From positions 4,929,973 to 4,993,972 of the forward strand of contig WBVU01000003.1 of assembly GCA_009192285.1 (NCBI GenBank): DNA of 64,000 nucleotides, given 5' to 3'. Position 1 is the stretch's first letter, and each line of letters begins with the position of its first letter. The notes beneath the pieces were generated by a model. The model had not been told where the DNA came from, did no database searches, and saw only the letters and a list, made by a program, of their open reading frames with translations. Below are positions 38,305-64,000 of this stretch, in pieces. Source of the stretch: Morchella semilibera (taxonomy: Eukaryota > Ascomycota > Pezizomycetes > Pezizales > Morchellaceae). A program made the position numbers and the translations under genes.

Positions 38305-39509
38305 CCCTACATTTTCTGGTTATCTCCGTTGGTCTGGCCATGGGTTGCCTTTTATGTGTTTAATGCCTAGGTTTGTTTCTAATTGAGAGCAAGAAAGGAG
38401 GTCATGACGGCTAGTGTTATTCATCATGCTGGTTTAGCTTTGTTCTTTGGATGTTTGGACCTGGAGTTGGTTTCGTTCACCTCATTTCACACAACACTCG
38501 CTTTTGAAATTCCGCAATTGCTACTGCAGCTTATTGTTCGCTGGATGTATTATTAGTGGTGCGGGTTGCAACTATTCAAAATGTCAAGCACATCCTGAAG
38601 AGGTGCCTGCGTTCTATTCACGTCCCTTGATTTCCCGGCTACATCTTAGTCTTTTAAACCTCAATTAGCTCTCACATACCACATACTTTCTATCATCATC
38701 TCGCTATTCAACTAAGGTACTATTACAGGGCACATCTTATCCCTCAGGTAATTCTATCTTCAAGTGTGTGGGGAAGTTCCTCTTTGAAGTATCTAGCATT
38801 TTTGTTGTGGTGTGGTATGTTGAGTGACATAAAAAGTAATAAGAAATACCCTCTCCTGCTCCCCTACCCCTCCCCTCCTCTCTCTTCTTTTCCTGCAGTT
38901 AGACTTGGGGATAAATTCTGAAATTTCCAATACACCTACGCCCAATATCATGGAGTTGTGCTGGTGGTGAACTTGGATGTTATTGCCCTGTAATCGGTTG
39001 AGGCGTCCTAGGGCTTAAAGTGATAATATAGACTTTGCGCAAATGGAGTCATCTCCATTTTTTGGTAAATTGATTTGTGCCGATCCCAAAGCCTGCCAAT
39101 CAGATTATTGAAGGAGGTGATCAGAATCTGATAAGATAGGACCGCAAGATTCACTTCGTCGCACAGCAGTGTGTGCGCAGAGAATCAACCGCCACAGGCT
39201 GGGCACGAGACTCCACTCCGCCAATTTAGAATTGGAGCGCACGGACCACACATTAGCCACCGCCACAGTTAAAAAAAGTTCGCGGCTCTATGTGATCCAC
39301 GACACCCCTCCACTTCAACAGTTCAACCCCACAACACAATTTATTGTCACCTATCAATCACGGAAGGTAACTAAATCCATCCATCTTTGATAAAGCTTCC
39401 AGCGAATTAGGTTGCTGACTATCGTAACGGATAGCCTCTTGCTCTTTTTTGCCCCTCTCGATCCTTCGTTTTAAACCCCACCTCTATTTGCTTTGCTTCA
39501 TAAGCAACC
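38305..39509. other. Intergenic region with a fold-back MITE
   Basis: 3' UTR of the upstream gene, then CCT7 promoter. Contains the 39029-39140 element. Otherwise nothing recognisable. Confidence 0.5.
39029..39140. mobile_element. Fold-back MITE, GACTTTGCGCAAA family, degenerate right end
   Basis: Begins TAGACTTTGCGCAAATGGAG, followed by the core GGTAAATTGATT and TGCCGATCCCAAAGCCTGCC that is shared with 57264-57380. The right arm has decayed to GGAGGTGATCAG and lacks the GCGCAAAGTC end. Confidence 0.75.
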
Positions 39510-57263: not shown

Positions 57264-57380
57264 TAGACTTTGCGCAAATGGAGCCAGCTCCGTTTTTGGT
57301 AACTCGATTGGTGCCGATCCCAAAGCCTGCCAACCAAATAATGGAAATATAGAGCTGGCTCTATCTGCGCGAAGTCTCTA
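57264..57380. mobile_element. Fold-back MITE, GACTTTGCGCAAA family, 117 bp
   Basis: The left arm TAGACTTTGCGCAAATGGAG then CCAGCTCC pairs with the right arm GAGCTGGCTCTATCTGCGCG then AAGTCTCTA. The core GATTGGTGCCGATCCCAAAG is shared with 39029-39140. No coding capacity. Confidence 0.85.
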
Positions 57381-57709
57381 ATAACATAGTAATATTAACT
57401 GCGATTGTATACTCGCGCGTTAACTAAGTCGTCGGATATCGTTGCAACCAAACGCTTATCAAAATTCCGACTTTCTAATTAACGACTGAGTATATCTACA
57501 TGTATATATGTATACCTACATGTACTATCCTATAAGCCTTTGAAGCTTCAGAGCTTCAGCCTGGAGGTTCTAATTTACCAATTCTTAGAAAGCACGCCTA
57601 GAAAACACATATAGGAGCTATCAGAAACGACTATGTATTGGCTCCCCGGTCCTGACACCTCCGGTCCTCTTCAACGCCCATAATGTACATCCATCAACAT
57701 ATACATGTA

Positions 57710-57808
57710 CAGTACCAAAAAAGGGATGTAATAGATACCATAGCAATACCGGAGTGTCATGGTATTCTGACAGATAAGGTACTAGATACACCCGCTCTTT
57801 TGGTACTG
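57710..57808. mobile_element. Tc1/mariner-type MITE, CAGTACC family, 99 bp
   Basis: TA-flanked (57708-57709 and 57809-57810). The left end CAGTACCAAAAAAGGGATGT and the inverted right end CAGTACCAAAAGAGCGGGTG match over about 30 bp. The interior holds ACCATAGCAATACCGG and TGTCATGGTATTC. Confidence 0.85.
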
Positions 57809-58037
57809 TAGTGATTAGTCCTGTTAGCTTCACAGTTTAGCAAACCCTCCACCTCGTTATTTTGCTACAATAGTATCAACTCGCGGCACCTATTTATAAA
57901 TAAAAAATTACATATATGTACATAAGGGCTAAGCCTATATGTTGATTTTATCTCACCATAAGTGTTTGTATCAAAGTGCATATACCGCATAACAATAGAC
58001 CATACCTCTCAAAAAGAAGATATACTTAAAGTACATA

Positions 58038-58208
58038 CAGTATAAAAAAATGGGGTGAAATCACTACCATAGGACTACGGAATTTAGTGACGAATACCAA
58101 ATTAAACCGGCATTAGAGGAAGTGCACTGTACAAATACCGTATTCTTACCGCATTGCTAGCGTATCAACGGGAATACCGTAGTGATCCCACCCCTCTTTT
58201 TGGTACTG
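58038..58208. mobile_element. Tc1/mariner-type MITE, CAGTACC family, 171 bp
   Basis: TA-flanked (58036-58037 and 58209-58210). The left end CAGTATAAAAAAATGGGGTG and the inverted right end CAGTACCAAAAAGAGGGGTG both run on to RRATCACTACC, giving arms of about 32 bp. It is the intact short form of the outer element at 48523-48986; similarity extends about 30 bp further left into the flank. Confidence 0.88.
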
Positions 58209-59211
58209 TACATTATGTTACCTACATGTATCACTTACTCGTTAATTGTCGGAAATTTTAGTAAGTACAAGTATGTATTTTGTTGCAACAATTTCCGACC
58301 ATTTAATTAACGCAGAAAAAAATATGCGAAAAGCCCTCACATGTAGTTGAGGAATTTTACAAACCTTGCGCACTCATGATCATGGCTATATTAGCTGGGC
58401 TGAACACTTAAGACATACATACATGTATACTTTATATGTTAAACACATTCAATGGTGTACATGTACGTATCAGATCTTCGCCAAGGACTAGAAAATAGTA
58501 TGTACATACATGTATACATGTAGTTAGCTTCCAAGAAACCCAACCCTGTGTGCATGCAGCTACTGCTGCTACCCTATATGTGAGCTAAACCACCTCATTC
58601 CCCCAAAGTCTCACCGTGAGCAAATATTTGCGCAAGTTATTTTCACCGGGTCACAAGTCTAGGTTCATTACATGTAGTGGCAACTCCTTTGGGGCATGTG
58701 GCTCTTTGCCCCTCGGCAGACCTAACACTCGCACTGGAAGTCTGGAACTCTGCCCGCCGTGAAACTGCCAGTTGTGGCTCCTCGTTTACCTATTCTAGCA
58801 AGTTTGTTCCTCTGGATTGTTAATTTAGTGACCATCACAGCGCCGTCATGGAGCTGACACTGTTATTAAATTATTTATTGTGTGCAGCGTGGAGATAACA
58901 TGGTGTGATTACTGAGGACCATAGGTGGGCGCCTCGCTGGTCACATATCCCTAAGCTTGTGACAATCAAAACGGCCGGAATTTGAAAGTGTTATGCACAA
59001 AACTCTCTCATCAGAATTTAGCTCAGTGAGGTATTCGATTCGGTATGCACTCAGTAGATGCCAAAGCCCCGATGTAGTCTCCTCAGGATAAAGACTATAA
59101 ATACTTTAGATTCCCAGCTCTTGCTAAGTTCAGTTCATTTCTCGGAGCATTATTATCTCCTGATCAGGGCCCGTATACTTTAACTTACTTACTCCTTAAC
59201 ATTTGACCACA

Positions 59212-60098
59212 ATGGACCACAGCACCATGAGTACACACGCCATGAGCTCGACATCGACCTCAACACAGACATCCACAGTAGCAGCCTGCAAGATATCTGT
59301 ATGAAACCCTACCCTCGGGCCTCCCGCTGTTTGCTATACTCGAAATTAACAAAGATCTCTATAGATGATGTGGAACTGGTACACCATTGACTCATGTTTC
59401 ATTTCTCGTTCGTGGCGCATTAAGACTCCCGCTATGTTTGTTGGCTCTTGCATTGGTGTGAGTGCATAAAATAGCTTGATAAAGACATTCAAATCTAAAT
59501 ATTGCTAACTTATGTCTACTACCCTAGGTCTTCCTCCTTGTACTAATCCTAGAATTTCTACGCCGCGCTCAGCGTGAATATGACCGCTACCTTGTCCGCT
59601 CAGGAACCACTAAGGCTTTGAGTATGCCATTAGAAGGAGCGTTGGGCCGTGTCACGCCACTAAATTATAAACCGACAATATTCCAAAGGGCAGTTAGAGC
59701 GGGGATTTATATGCTCCAGTTTGGTCTTGCGTGAGCCGTAACCTTACTCTGCCCTTAACACTTCTTTACTGACTGGGCATGTTTAGTTACTTTGTATTTT
59801 TTCACCAATTCTAATTGATGTAATATTACCATTACTGTAATGTGGAGCTAACAAATGCGCCATAGATAATGTTATTGGCGATGTACTACAATGGTTCTCA
59901 TTCCAAAGACCCCAAATGTAAATTCATAGCTAACAATGATCATATGAAGGCTACTTTATTATTTGCATACTACTTGGAGCATTCGCTGGTTACTTTTTGT
60001 TTGGGTATGATAATATCACTATCAGGTCTGCAATACTCTCTCCAAGATCAGATCACAAATATTATATGGCTAATCTCTATCAAAACTGCAACCTATAG
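59212..60098 (+). CDS. Ctr-family copper transporter, 6 exons including a 7-nt microexon
   Basis: Moves Cu(I) across the plasma or vacuolar membrane as a trimer. Exons 59212-59298, 59365-59457, 59528-59730, 59787-59793, 59866-59893 and 59950-60098 give 188 residues. The N-terminus is Met/His/Ser-rich (MDHSTMSTHAM). CKISMMWNWYTIDSCFIS leads into helix 1 (TPAMFVGSCIGVFLLVLILEFLRR). Helix 2 holds the MxxxM motif (MLLAM) and helix 3 a GxxxG motif (GAFAG). The joined text LQFGLAYFIMLLAMYYNGYF continuing into IICILLGAFAGYFLFGYD only appears if exon 4 is the 7-nt T-TAC-TTT and the 56-nt intron at 59894-59949 (donor GTTCTC, acceptor AAG) is removed. Without these the reading frame breaks before helix 3. 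The C-terminal 25 residues are unfamiliar. Confidence 0.88.
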
Positions 60099-60921
60099 AG
60101 GAGAGAATGAGAGCGAGGGTACTGCATGCTGTTAACTATATTCGCGCCTGATTCCGGTTCCTGCTTTATTCTAGTGATTTCCTAAATTTGGTAGCCGCTT
60201 TGTAACAAGGCCTAATTCTCATTCAGTGCTAAATTGCATTGACTACTTTTACGTCTCGTGCTGAACTAAGAATTACAGATGGCGGGTTGAACATTCTACT
60301 TTGGTTAATCATGTAATATCACTCGACTTGTTTACTAGCTTATATACATGTACTTATACCTTGTAGTTATCAAATCACTAGAAGGTAGGAGCGGCGTGGG
60401 CCACCATATTCAAGTAAACCCAAAGAAGTTATTCCTTTATTAAACAGTTAAAAACTCTTCGCTTGCTTCCGATAAGCTGCCCCAACTTTCCAAAGAACCT
60501 AGGCATTAGCGGTTGTGGTGCAATGTGGGCTGCGCGGGTGAGAGATTATGAAAAGCCATGCTCATAACAAGAGAAGAGGCCTCACCCCCGGCGCGGCTCC
60601 ACAGAGGACCTCATCTCTACAGGAGCAATTGAGATTTAAAACACTTGGCTCCGGCCTTATATCTATAATGCCCCTTTACCCACCAATCTAACCCGGTATA
60701 TGCATACATGCAAAAGAAAAGATATACTAGCTCCACTCATGTGCCCAATATTTACACACCACTACCCGCGCAAGAGGCAAGTACCACTACATATACAACA
60801 CATAAATTAAATGGAAACAACGAGAAAGACTCAAGAGAAAACCCCCCCAACCCTAGGTAGCTAGTATGAACAAATATAAACACATCAAATAAAAAAGCGG
60901 CAACTAGATTTTTCGCTAGTA
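60099..60921. other. Convergent 3' intergenic region
   Basis: 3' flanks of the copper transporter (+) and the PPR gene (-). One TACATGTA at about 60347. Nothing else seen. Confidence 0.5.
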
Positions 60922-63288
60922 TTAATGGCGGGCCCTTAGCTCCTGCAGATGGTTCCGGCTCTTCACCAACTTTCTCCTCACATGCTCCCTCTTTCTCTTC
61001 GGCAAAATATTAGGCTTCCCCTCTAATCCCTCGAAATATTTCAGAATCTCCCTCGCCTTCTGGTCGGCCGCTTGATCCTGCAGCCTCTCCTTGAGCTTTA
61101 CACACCGCGCCACGAGCCACGATATGAAGGCTTCGTCCTCTTGGCTTTCGGAAGTTTCCTTGGCTCTCCGGAGATACCTCATAAATATCCTGTCGGGCAT
61201 TTCCTGCTGTGCCTCCATGGTTTCCACCACCCAGCGCATTCCCTTTAAATCCTTAATCAAGGTATATGCATGCAGCAGTGTTGTCAACCCTACGATATTC
61301 CACTCTGAACCCCAGCTTGAAGTGCTGACTTGGTTCATTAGGAATATAGCACCGTGTGGATCGCCGGATACGGCGAGCTCCCATGCGGTCCTAACCAAGA
61401 TATAGTGGCTGATTGGTAGGCAATGTTTACTCATGAAATTATAGGAAGTGTGAAGTTGCCGCAAAATGGTATTCGGCTTTTCTGGCAAGGAGGGGGAAGG
61501 CGAAGAGGAATATATACTATTCGACGAGGATGAAAGCACGCTCAGTACGACGTCATTGACATGGACGCCTCGTTTGTGGGCGAGATATAGAAGGCGGGAG
61601 ACATTGTCGTGCTCGGATGCCGGGATTCGGAAAGACGCACGAACTACGGAGGCAGTGAGGAATGCTGAGGGTTTTAGACCCTGGGCTAATATGTCGGTGA
61701 ATATACAGATTGCATCATATGGGCGGCCTTCATCGGTTGCTGAATCCATTGCCTTAATCTCTGGTAAGAAGACATCATCCTTCAATAATGGAGAGGTGCG
61801 GCGGAGGTTTGCCCGACGCTCGTAGGCGAGGGAGTCTTTGAGCATAGAGTCAAGGAGCATCTTTTTCGTCATTGTGTTGACAAGACTCGGGTTTATGTCG
61901 AGTACGGCGTTGTAAAGACGGCGGAGAACAGAGGGTTGAGCTTTGGCTTGGCGAAGCTGATGAAACAGGATATTGAAGGTGAGAGCATCTGGAAGATGCC
62001 CAGCTGACTTCATATGATTGAACCACCGGTTCTTGGCTTCTTCATTTTTGGCGCGGCAAGAGGCATGAATCAAGACGTTATATGAATACCGGTCTGGAAC
62101 TATGCCAAGGGATACCATTGATTCGAAAAAACGCTCAACTAAAGGCAAATCGGCCACCCGGGCATAAGAATGTAAGAGGGCATTGAAGCCACGGGTCGAG
62201 AGCTTTATATTATAGCCCTGCATCCGTAGCATCGTTTTGCCAACAGCGTCCCAGTCTCCGGCCATTGATTGTTTACTGAGAAACAAAATAAATGTTTCGA
62301 GATTGTATCCCAGTCCTCTTTCCACCATCTCGTCCGCATATCTCTTTGCGAGGCCGTACTGGCTACAATCCAATGCCATCTTGATCATGATATTGTAGAC
62401 TGGAGAGTGTGGGCTTAAGTGTGTAGATTTCATCCACTCGAATACCCTAGTCATGTCCGGCAAGCTCTCGGTGAGTTTTCTCACCCCATACAGCAGTAAT
62501 TGAAACGAATGGCGCGTAACAGGCCCACCCGACTCCAAGACAACCTTTAACAAATCCTCTGCTTTGCTCAATTGCCCCATAGCAATAAAGTTTCTCAGGA
62601 TGATGTTAATCGTCACATAGTTGGGTTTGACAAGGCCTTGGTATTTCCTATATACCTCAATTAACTTACCCGGTCGATTATTTAACAGGTACGCCTCCAT
62701 GCAGAGGTTCAAACAAGAGGTATCGATCGATGCCGGATCCGTGATAGCCATTAGATTGAATATATGTGGTGTCCCTAGTGATCGTCGGTTCCGATTGAAG
62801 GCTTTCATTAACGATATTCCCAGTAATTGTATGTCTTTCTCGTCCGCTTTCTTCTCCTTCGCATCAATCCACTTATCCACAGCCTCTTTCAATCGCTTTG
62901 CGTTGATAAGACGGGAGCTATCCAAGAACCATGCTTTGGGGTTATGCATCTTCCTCTTCCTCTTAAACTTTATCCTTGTCTTCTTCCATTTCGCCCTGTT
63001 TGCGGACAAAGCCGAACTCCGTAGCACGTCCCGCTCGACCGGAGGTACCAATTGATGAGACACCAGCTCGGCCTCCGGTCCTTTTGTTTCTCCCACATGA
63101 GCCCCCAATTCCCCACCGTGAAGTCCTCTTTGTTTGAAAAACTCTCTTTCTCCCCAGTGATGATGTATTCGAGCGCAATTGACCGCCATAGTGGTGGGGC
63201 GGTATTTGTAGAGCCTGGGAAACAGGATTTGACGTAAATAACGGAGGGCGCTCTGGGAGGGCGCTAAGGCGTGCAATGAAGCTCTCAT
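60922..63288 (-). CDS. Mitochondrial pentatricopeptide repeat (PPR) protein, single exon
   Basis: 788 residues without introns. Residues 1-33 (MRASLHALAPSQSALRYLRQ...) are Arg/Leu/Ser-rich with no acids, a good mitochondrial presequence. A basic stretch follows (KKTRIKFKRKRK). From about residue 195 degenerate 35-residue helical hairpins recur: NYVTINIILRNFIAMGQLSK, HSFQLLLYGVRKL, SPVYNIMIKMALDCSQYG, STRGFNALLHSYARVADLP, DRYSYNVLIHASCRAKNEE and DALTFNILFHQLRQAKAQ. Further helices and a Lys/Arg-rich C-terminus (KRKREHVRRKLVKSRN) complete it. Proteins of this type bind specific organellar RNAs; the target cannot be told from sequence. The start at 63288 gives the best presequence, and the next in-frame Met (MAVNC) is also possible. 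A short leader precedes it. Confidence 0.88.
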   Translation of the reverse strand: MRASLHALAPSQSALRYLRQILFPRLYKYRPTTMAVNCARIHHHWGEREFFKQRGLHGGELGAHVGETKGPEAELVSHQLVPPVERDVLRSSALSANRAKWKKTRIKFKRKRKMHNPKAWFLDSSRLINAKRLKEAVDKWIDAKEKKADEKDIQLLGISLMKAFNRNRRSLGTPHIFNLMAITDPASIDTSCLNLCMEAYLLNNRPGKLIEVYRKYQGLVKPNYVTINIILRNFIAMGQLSKAEDLLKVVLESGGPVTRHSFQLLLYGVRKLTESLPDMTRVFEWMKSTHLSPHSPVYNIMIKMALDCSQYGLAKRYADEMVERGLGYNLETFILFLSKQSMAGDWDAVGKTMLRMQGYNIKLSTRGFNALLHSYARVADLPLVERFFESMVSLGIVPDRYSYNVLIHASCRAKNEEAKNRWFNHMKSAGHLPDALTFNILFHQLRQAKAQPSVLRRLYNAVLDINPSLVNTMTKKMLLDSMLKDSLAYERRANLRRTSPLLKDDVFLPEIKAMDSATDEGRPYDAICIFTDILAQGLKPSAFLTASVVRASFRIPASEHDNVSRLLYLAHKRGVHVNDVVLSVLSSSSNSIYSSSPSPSLPEKPNTILRQLHTSYNFMSKHCLPISHYILVRTAWELAVSGDPHGAIFLMNQVSTSSWGSEWNIVGLTTLLHAYTLIKDLKGMRWVVETMEAQQEMPDRIFMRYLRRAKETSESQEDEAFISWLVARCVKLKERLQDQAADQKAREILKYFEGLEGKPNILPKRKREHVRRKLVKSRNHLQELRARH

Positions 63289-64000
63289 CGTGGTCCGTCA
63301 TCATCGTCTGTGCGGAATCGTTACGGGTTGACGTCGCGCATTATGCGGGGGAGGCGTTGGTGGGGGGAGGGCGGCCGGCGTGTTACAATCGGTAGAGGGG
63401 CGGATTTTTTCTGGTTGTCGTCTGATTTTGTCACCCCATAGGCTAGCTTCACGGGTAGCCCTAACCCTGAATATAACGGTATAGTTCGCCTAAAGATCAA
63501 CTAGAATCACTTTCTCACTTTCTGTAACAGGATAATTATGTACAATTTGAAGAGGCCGTGCGCGTGAATGAGTGGGAGAAATTGAGGGTTGGAGCCCATT
63601 CCCACATACCGTATTGCAGGCGCCTCCACACACTTGGCTTTTTATGCTAGTGATTTTTAGATACATGTAAATACCATTAGTGTCATTAACGTAGAGATGA
63701 ACATTAGAGACTTTGCGCAAAAGACTCCAGAGTCTTTTCCCGGTAACCTGATTGGCGCCGATCCTCTCATCAGCCAACAATACAAGTGGGAAAAGACTCT
63801 GGTGTCTTTTGCGCAAAGTCCCTACATGTATTTAGACAATCATGACTTTAGGTTATATATATCTGCCGGTCCCTTTAGACTTTTTGTCGAACTTGGAATT
63901 GGGAACGCCAACGTGCAAATACGCGAAAGCCCCGTAGAGGAATTTTAAAGTACGCTATTACTATAATCCTGTCCCTATACATCGGGTTTGGAGAAATTTT
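63289..64000. other. Terminal intergenic region with a fold-back MITE
   Basis: PPR promoter, then an AT-rich stretch containing the 63705-63824 element and a TACATGTA just left of it (about 63663). No gene supported. Confidence 0.5.
63705..63824. mobile_element. Fold-back MITE, GACTTTGCGCAAA family, 120 bp, best preserved
   Basis: The left arm TAGAGACTTTGCGCAAAAGA then CTCCAGAGTCTTTTCCC, and the inverted right arm TAGGGACTTTGCGCAAAAGA then CACCAGAGTCTTTTCCC, differ at two positions over 37 bp. The core GGTAACCTGATTGGCGCCGA is shared with the other copies. Near-identical arms suggest recent activity or arm homogenisation. Confidence 0.9.

What the first reader, a model, noticed from the sequence alone, without database searches (positions are those of the whole stretch)
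57264..63824. MITE family whose arms carry a small hairpin that differs between copies but matches within a copy
Three elements share the ends GACTTTGCGCAAA and a core around GATTGGTGCCGATCC. Just inside each end sits a short self-complementary segment: GGAGCCAGCTCC at 57264, GACTCCAGAGTC at 63705, GGAGTCATCTCC at 39029. These differ completely between copies, yet in the two intact copies the left and right arms agree with each other. Each segment also folds on itself (stem-CA-stem). That is compensatory variation on two levels, odd for a simple transposon end. It suggests that folding is selected, or that the two arms are corrected against each other when the element forms a hairpin.
Basis: partly seen in the sequence, partly recalled or inferred. 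Interest (0 to 1): 0.72.

Follow-up and report, generated by a model that had tools for sequence, protein, structure and literature searches.

The report
Small transposon with self-copied palindromic ends
This is a family of tiny, gene-less jumping elements whose hairpin-like ends differ only because the copies belong to a few old subfamilies; those ends decay like ordinary junk DNA, but one ancestral line seems to have made its ends by copying a nine-letter stretch into three other places.

Summary
The elements are real: a ~116 bp MITE family that inserts at TA, with 101 exact GACTTTGCGCAAA hits in the 56.7 Mb genome and 0 for the reversed control. Only two inner palindromes recur in the copies read: A (GGAGC-CA-GCTCC) and B/C (GACTC-CA-GAGTC); the 39029 'third type' is a decayed A. 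Over 124 copies, paired arm changes equal chance in A and C, left and right arms of one copy are no more alike than arms of different copies of its subfamily, and tips, arms and core decay alike. So no ongoing folding selection or arm correction is seen.

An older subfamily D (8 copies found) nearly equals C outside the arms, but carries the GACTC half-arm in one of four places where B/C carry it in all four: 19 of 27 sites differ in the other three half-arms, against 8 of 89 elsewhere. Templated copying before amplification is the likeliest cause. The self-palindromic tips and arms also act as direct repeats, which would explain 20-bp and ~44-bp solo remnants.

The parts
63707..63822 (+). complete B-subfamily MITE; TA flanks at 63705-63706 and 63823-63824
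   Evidence: 96.6% to the B consensus over 1-116; sequence
63719..63738 (+). left arm palindrome AAAAGACTC-CA-GAGTCTTTT
   Evidence: 9 of 9 stem positions match in the B/C consensus
63791..63810 (+). right arm palindrome AAAAGACTC-TG-GTGTCTTTT, one mismatch
57265..57378 (+). complete A-subfamily MITE, 88.7% to consensus; TA at 57264-57265 and 57379-57380; left tip lacks two bases
57276..57295 (+). left arm palindrome AAATGGAGC-CA-GCTCCGTTT
57347..57366 (+). right arm ATATAGAGC-TG-GCTCTATCT
39030..39112 (+). A-subfamily MITE, right arm lost
   Evidence: 86.7% over consensus 2-84
39041..39060 (+). decayed A-type left arm AAATGGAGT-CA-TCTCCATTT

Best explanation
A non-coding, TA-inserting MITE family (~116 bp, whole element able to fold as one hairpin) with four subfamilies A-D. 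Shown on the sampled copies: arm type is fixed by subfamily and copies then decay evenly, with no sign of arm correction or of selection on folding after insertion. Inferred: in the founder(s) of B and C, a nine-base half-arm (AAAAGACTC, left outer) was copied, partly as its reverse complement, over the left inner, right inner and right outer half-arms, turning an imperfect D-like element into a near-perfect hairpin. DNA-polymerase template switching inside the hairpin (quasi-palindrome correction), during replication or repair after excision, is the likeliest way. Because tips (TTTGCGCAAA) and arms are palindromes, the inverted ends are also direct repeats, so slippage or annealing between them can remove the interior and leave solo tips (20 bp) or solo arms (~44 bp). 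Movement by a transposase supplied in trans is inferred; none was matched to the family.
For: Subfamilies: 60 A, 11 B, 53 C distinct copies. Even decay, substitutions per site in tip/arm/core: A .086/.074/.082, B .071/.066/.062, C .078/.077/.077. TA on both sides in 55 of 87 copies with both ends; contexts ATAA 21, TTAT 12, TTAA 6 of those 55. Block change: the four consensi are each 116 bp and align without gaps; C and D differ at 27 sites, 19 of 27 in three half-arms and 8 of 89 elsewhere (6 in the core, 2 in the right-arm centre), 0 in tips and left outer half, Fisher p 8.6e-10. The 12 two-state sites in those half-arms that split the four consensi two by two all group A with D and B with C; outside them 8 group A with B and C with D, 1 groups A with C, 0 A with D. 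Each of the 8 D copies has 10-12 of 12 A-state arm sites, 4-8 of 8 C-state sites outside (0-1 A/B-state), and 2-4 of 4 B/C-state sites in the left outer half. A and D differ by 8 of 27 in the three half-arms and 17 of 52 in the core, so D's halves look inherited rather than borrowed from modern A. D is most diverged: mean .148 against .080.066.077. Hairpin energy of the consensi: D -25.3, A -39.0, B -43.8, C -47.5 kcal/mol. Template switching is reported to homogenise short inverted-repeat arms, invert spacers and recur in parallel in yeast (PMC8604942, abstract and passages) and to be able to make perfect stems in one event (PMC8794818, abstract). Solo remnants: 9 distinct 20-bp places and 7 of 38-50 bp.
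Against: No A or B copy has a half-arm of the other type, and in the C rows only C20:1291707 does, which is the D copy L159 (0 of 60 A, 0 of 11 B, 1 of 53 C); so the events are rare and not caught in the act, and no copy with two or three of four halves replaced was seen. D rests on 8 old copies; L220, L221 and L227 were found with D-arm patterns and L203, L204 with a tip-plus-left-outer pattern, which biases them towards those arms. Outside the arms, tree signal rests largely on 5 tip sites; the core alone gives 3 to 1. Two A-like copies (C20:3715611, C1:3249033) have a D-like right centre but an A-like left outer half, so the origin of the GACTC half is unknown. Flipped centres in single copies are few: right 2 of 55 (A, 0.15 expected), 1 of 51 (C, 0.69 expected), 0 of 9 (B); left 0 of 59, 0 of 49, 0 of 8.
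Confidence: 0.68

Rival explanations
1. Recombination or gene conversion between elements: B/C arms, or D's arms, came from another subfamily or an autonomous relative, not from copying within one element.
For: TIR exchange among copies is proposed for Galileo (PMC3573991, passages). B is mosaic: A-like tips, C-like arms.
Against: Three separate tracts of about 9 bp would have to be exchanged while tips, left outer half and core stay C-like; D's halves differ from A's as much as the core does (8 of 27 against 17 of 52), which a recent donor would not give.
Confidence: 0.24
2. The palindromes are transposase-binding dimer sites; each arm type fits a different transposase variant, and selection on founders made all four half-sites match.
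For: B and C arms are perfect at all four half-sites; A and C gave far more copies than D in this sample (60 and 53 against 8).
Against: No matching transposase identified, although DDE_1 (96), DDE_3 (69) and DDE_Tnp_4 (35) matches exist; the D left arm does not fold and the right one barely does, yet D also reached 8 places. It does not exclude copying as the source of the change.
Confidence: 0.25
3. Folding is selected in resident copies (small-RNA hairpin or regulatory stem), or arms are continually corrected within each copy.
For: Whole elements, and the arms of B, C and the left arm of A, can fold. In B, with 11 copies, left-right likeness within a copy is slightly above other copies (186 of 2000 permutations).
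Against: In A and C no excess of compensatory pairs and equal decay of arm and core, no within-copy likeness beyond subfamily; no Rfam match in the window.
Confidence: 0.03
4. Solo tips and solo arms are mobile micro-elements in their own right, not deletion remnants.
For: TA flanks on both sides at C18:425568, C19:1629092, C20:457259, C5:1095257 and C21:1140754; the first two have no mismatch to the tip pattern.
Against: The nine 20-bp places include both A/B-type and C-type tips, and the lengths found cluster at the two palindrome sizes, as deletion between repeats predicts; 20 bp is shorter than usual transposase end sites (recalled).
Confidence: 0.06

Closest known systems
Stowaway-type and other Tc1/mariner-derived MITEs
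   Same: Short, non-coding, inverted ends, TA duplicated at the target.
   Different: No matching transposase found; tips GRGAC or GGCCC; ends carry nested palindromes. What is usual for Stowaway rests on recall.
PHIS superfamily (ISL2EU with AT duplications; fungal PHISTA with TA duplications)
   Same: AT-rich target; PHISTA duplicates TA (PMC12730594, passages); 35 DDE_Tnp_4 matches in this genome.
   Different: ISL2EU duplicates AT (PMC4482050, passages). No TIR match could be tested.
Galileo / Foldback transposons
   Same: Changing TIRs, chimeric subfamilies and solo-TIR copies (PMC3573991 and PMC4168063, passages).
   Different: Galileo has long TIRs and 7-8 bp duplications; here 116 bp in all, TA, and half-arms changed in ~9-base blocks.
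Template-switch (quasi-palindrome) mutations
   Same: Block changes that make inverted arms match, with a spacer flip CA/TG.
   Different: Reported for yeast genes and RNA stems in what I read (abstracts and passages); here inferred in founders of a mobile element and at both its ends.

Membership tests
MITE | Short, no coding capacity | tested here: met
   Consensi of 116 bp; too short for a transposase.
MITE | Terminal inverted repeats | tested here: met
   Whole-element hairpins in the A, B and C consensi; weaker in D.
MITE | Target-site duplication | tested here: met
   TA both sides in 55 of 87 copies with both ends; left TA 65, right TA 72.
MITE | Many dispersed copies | tested here: met
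   124 distinct copies aligned from 162 merged hits.
Tc1/mariner-derived MITE | TA duplication | tested here: met
Tc1/mariner-derived MITE | Ends shared with a Tc1/mariner/pogo transposase gene | not tested
PHISTA (PHIS with TA) | Ends shared with a DDE_Tnp_4 transposase gene | not tested
   35 matches located; no flanks available.
ISL2EU | AT duplication in A|AT|T | tested here: not met
   Duplicated dinucleotide is TA; commonest contexts ATAA, TTAT (definition from PMC4482050 passages).
Structured functional RNA or selected stem | Compensatory covariation | tested here: not met
   Observed equals permutation in A and C; B has 11 copies and one event.
Template-switch mutation | Block change matching the reverse complement of a nearby arm | tested here: met
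   C left inner, right inner and right outer halves equal the left outer half 9 of 9; D 3, 3 and 2 of 9.
Template-switch mutation | Known direction and single event on a dated branch | tested here: inconclusive
   Polarised by A and D agreeing (12 sites), but sites outside the arms split B from C.

The most novel reading that the evidence does not exclude
A MITE line became a successful amplifier by rewriting its own ends: one nine-base half-arm was copied by hairpin template switching into the other three half-arm positions, possibly twice independently (B and C), turning a poor hairpin into a near-perfect one, and the new palindromic ends then drove the spread. The same nested palindromes make the element erase itself to 20-bp or 44-bp stubs.
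Probability: 0.22. Interest if true: 0.62.

Novelty: new variant of a known kind. Interest (0 to 1): 0.42.

Why it matters
Terminal repeats of DNA transposons stay alike at the two ends, and how they do so when new subfamilies arise is rarely seen directly (recalled). Here an older subfamily with only one of four half-arms of the later type is still readable, so the change can be traced base by base. It also shows how apparent compensatory covariation can come from subfamily history and block change rather than selection on folding, and how palindromic ends that double as direct repeats can leave tiny stubs that annotation would miss.

Tried and rejected
Rejected: within-copy correction and folding selection; the 39029 arm as a third type; TWA or AT duplications; D as a recent A x C chimera. 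Led nowhere: autonomous partner. By eye, no inward-facing pair of tips 1-10 kb apart among the places listed (100 of 101, 100 of 145, so not exhaustive); three exact tips without MITE interior (L001, L005, L007) show, among open frames of 80 aa or more in their 3-kb loci, none that I recognised as a transposase (no family search was run on them). Transposase matches near MITEs were judged coincidental from coordinates only, by rough arithmetic and no call. No Rfam family and no tRNA in the window. Not done: small-RNA data, related species, host name.

Dropped before counts: of 162 merged hits, 133 covered at least 80 consensus bases, and 9 near-identical allelic duplicates on C9/C10, C12/C13 and C21/C22 were then removed, leaving 124. 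One C row (C20:1291707) is the D copy L159 and was left in. Of 53 C rows, 35 have no A-state arm site, 17 have one and that D copy has three; of 60 A rows, 53 have no B/C-state site and 7 have one. In one search the right-inner half was printed reversed, so its table covers three half-arms; searches give all four. Searches scored only 40 of 146, 124 and 105 candidates, and 45 of the 145 places were not listed, so the copy set is incomplete.
Full report
WHAT IS THERE. The window is bases 4,929,973-4,993,972 of contig 19 of an unnamed 56.7-Mb genome in 23 contigs. Of five window frames tested, four have Pfam matches (two Cid1/MTPAP-like poly(A) polymerase pieces, a PPR protein, CBF/Mak21). That the host is a eukaryote, probably a fungus, is my inference. 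Three contig pairs look nearly identical (for example C9 2,071,371 and C10 2,071,177 bp) and are treated as alleles.

THE FAMILY. GACTTTGCGCAAA occurs 101 times, the reversed control 0 times; 101 such hits lie in the stretches I fetched. Consensus searches added copies (each scored 40 of 146, 124 and 105 candidates), as did a tip-plus-arm pattern (145 hits, 100 listed). One search merged 162 hits; 133 covered 80 bases or more and 124 remained after dropping 9 allelic duplicates: A 60, B 11, C 53 (one of the 53 is a D copy). The consensi are 116 bp, start GAGAC (A), GAGAC/GGGAC (B) or GGCCC (C, D), and sit between TA dinucleotides: both sides TA in 55 of 87 copies with both ends, left TA in 65, right TA in 72.

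57265-57378 and 39030-39112 are A copies, the latter without its right arm; 63707-63822 is B. The three 'different' hairpins are therefore A, decayed A and B/C.

TEST OF COVARIATION. For each stem pair I counted copies with both sides changed and still complementary, against 2000 permutations. A: left arm 2 (mean 2.36), right arm 1 (0.46), left-right 6 (8.07). C: 1 (1.09), 2 (1.20), 9 (8.02). B, 11 copies: 1 (0.11; 216 of 2000 permutations reach it), 0 (0.00), 1 (1.28). Slid controls for the left arm (+1, +2, +3) gave 1, 0, 0 (A), 0, 0, 0 (B) and 2, 1, 2 (C). Divergence is flat over tip, arm and core. Left-right mismatch within a copy equals that between copies of the subfamily in A and C; in B it is slightly lower, 186 of 2000 permutations being as low over tip plus arm and 241 over the arm alone.

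WHAT SURVIVES: BLOCK CHANGE BETWEEN FOUNDERS. Eight older copies form subfamily D (L159, L203, L204, L216, L217, L220, L221, L227), mean divergence .148 from their own consensus. Writing each half-arm in the same sense, A has AAATGGAGC three times and ATATAGAGC once; B and C have AAAAGACTC four times; D has AAAAGACTC at the left outer half and ATTTGGAGC, ATCTGGAGC, AGGCAGAGC at left inner, right inner and right outer. C and D share tips and left outer half completely and differ by 6 of 52 in the core, but by 19 of 27 in the other three half-arms plus both bases of the right centre; leaving out any one D copy gives 18-19 of 27 against 8-11 of 89. Arm sites group A with D (12 of 12 two-by-two sites), other sites group C with D (8 of 9). 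Every D copy shows 10-12 of 12 A-state arm sites; of 11 B copies none shows any; of 53 C copies 35 show none, 17 one, and the D copy among them three. The simplest reading is that the left outer half was copied over three places in the line(s) leading to B and C. B sharing the arms but not the tips of C leaves three options open: parallel copying, exchange between B and C, or homoplasy of the tips.

MECHANISM. Reverse-complement copying between arms of a quasi-palindrome is the known effect of polymerase template switching, which also flips short spacers and can recur (PMC8604942: abstract and passages; PMC8794818: abstract and opening). The CA/TG centre of the right arm is flipped between D and A/B/C. 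Whole-element hairpin energy is -25.3 for the D consensus and -47.5 kcal/mol for C. That the change happened during repair after excision, and that it helped amplification, is inference. In fixed copies it is not seen: apart from the D copy in the C rows, 0 of 60 A, 0 of 11 B and 0 of the other 52 C rows have a half-arm of the other type (halves with too many gaps or changes are unclassified), and right-centre flips are 2 of 55 (A), 0 of 9 (B) and 1 of 51 (C).

SOLO REMNANTS. One search found 22 palindromic places with up to 3 mismatches (its backward control found 1). Thirteen have at most two; of these, three are MITE copies with one A missing (L149 full-length, L150 and L153 truncated), and one is an allele, leaving 9 solo tips: C18:425566, C19:1629090, C5:1095255, C18:236680, C20:457257, C21:1140752, C3:2566366, C20:1374416, C20:2521094; C2:2713505 is an imperfect tenth. 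One search measures them at 20 bp; five of the nine have TA on both sides. Solo arms of 38-50 bp: C3:686470, C2:481658, C1:4152554, C12:1331153, C19:1971880, C2:5634777 and C11:905658. Of the 7 places, one (C13) is an allele, one (C21:2531579) a fuller copy, and one (C4:539266) a doubtful solo that I did not count. Tip and arm are palindromes, so the inverted ends are also direct repeats; deletion between them would give these two sizes. This is inferred, since no allelic full copy was available.

PARTNER AND FILING. DDE_1, DDE_3 and DDE_Tnp_4 transposase matches number 96, 69 and 35, but no ends could be compared. TA fits Tc1/mariner (recalled) and also fungal PHISTA (PMC12730594, passages), not ISL2EU (AT; PMC4482050, passages). 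I file it as a MITE, superfamily open. Ten paper searches (listings only, apart from the passages and abstracts cited) showed me no title or abstract opening on half-arm copying in a MITE; that is not proof of absence.

Noticed in passing
L078 (C21:2531270-2532190): A MITE of this family is interrupted by sequence beginning TACAGCGGTGGGGAAAATTATTGTA, apparently a second TA-target family.
   Followed up: no
L022 (C2:2713505) and L032 (C5:1095257): Both solo tips lie close to a repeat GGATGACTTCCCGTGGAAATTTAG, perhaps another small element.
   Followed up: no
C12:1557638-1558108 and C12:1559393-1559482: A DDE_Tnp_4 transposase frame (313 aa) lies 1.3 kb from a D copy; could be chance.
   Followed up: no
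C23:429867, C3:1650201, C20:2301826: Three C copies share a short change at the edge of the right arm (inserted GATC, or its remnant), a possible sub-subfamily marker.
   Followed up: no
contigs C9/C10, C12/C13, C21/C22: Three contig pairs carry the same copies at matching places, as if only some chromosomes were assembled in two haplotypes.
   Followed up: partly
L070 (C20:3715611) and L015 (C1:3249033): Two A-like copies have a D-like right arm centre (CA in the copy's sense), hinting at a further, older A subfamily.
   Followed up: partly
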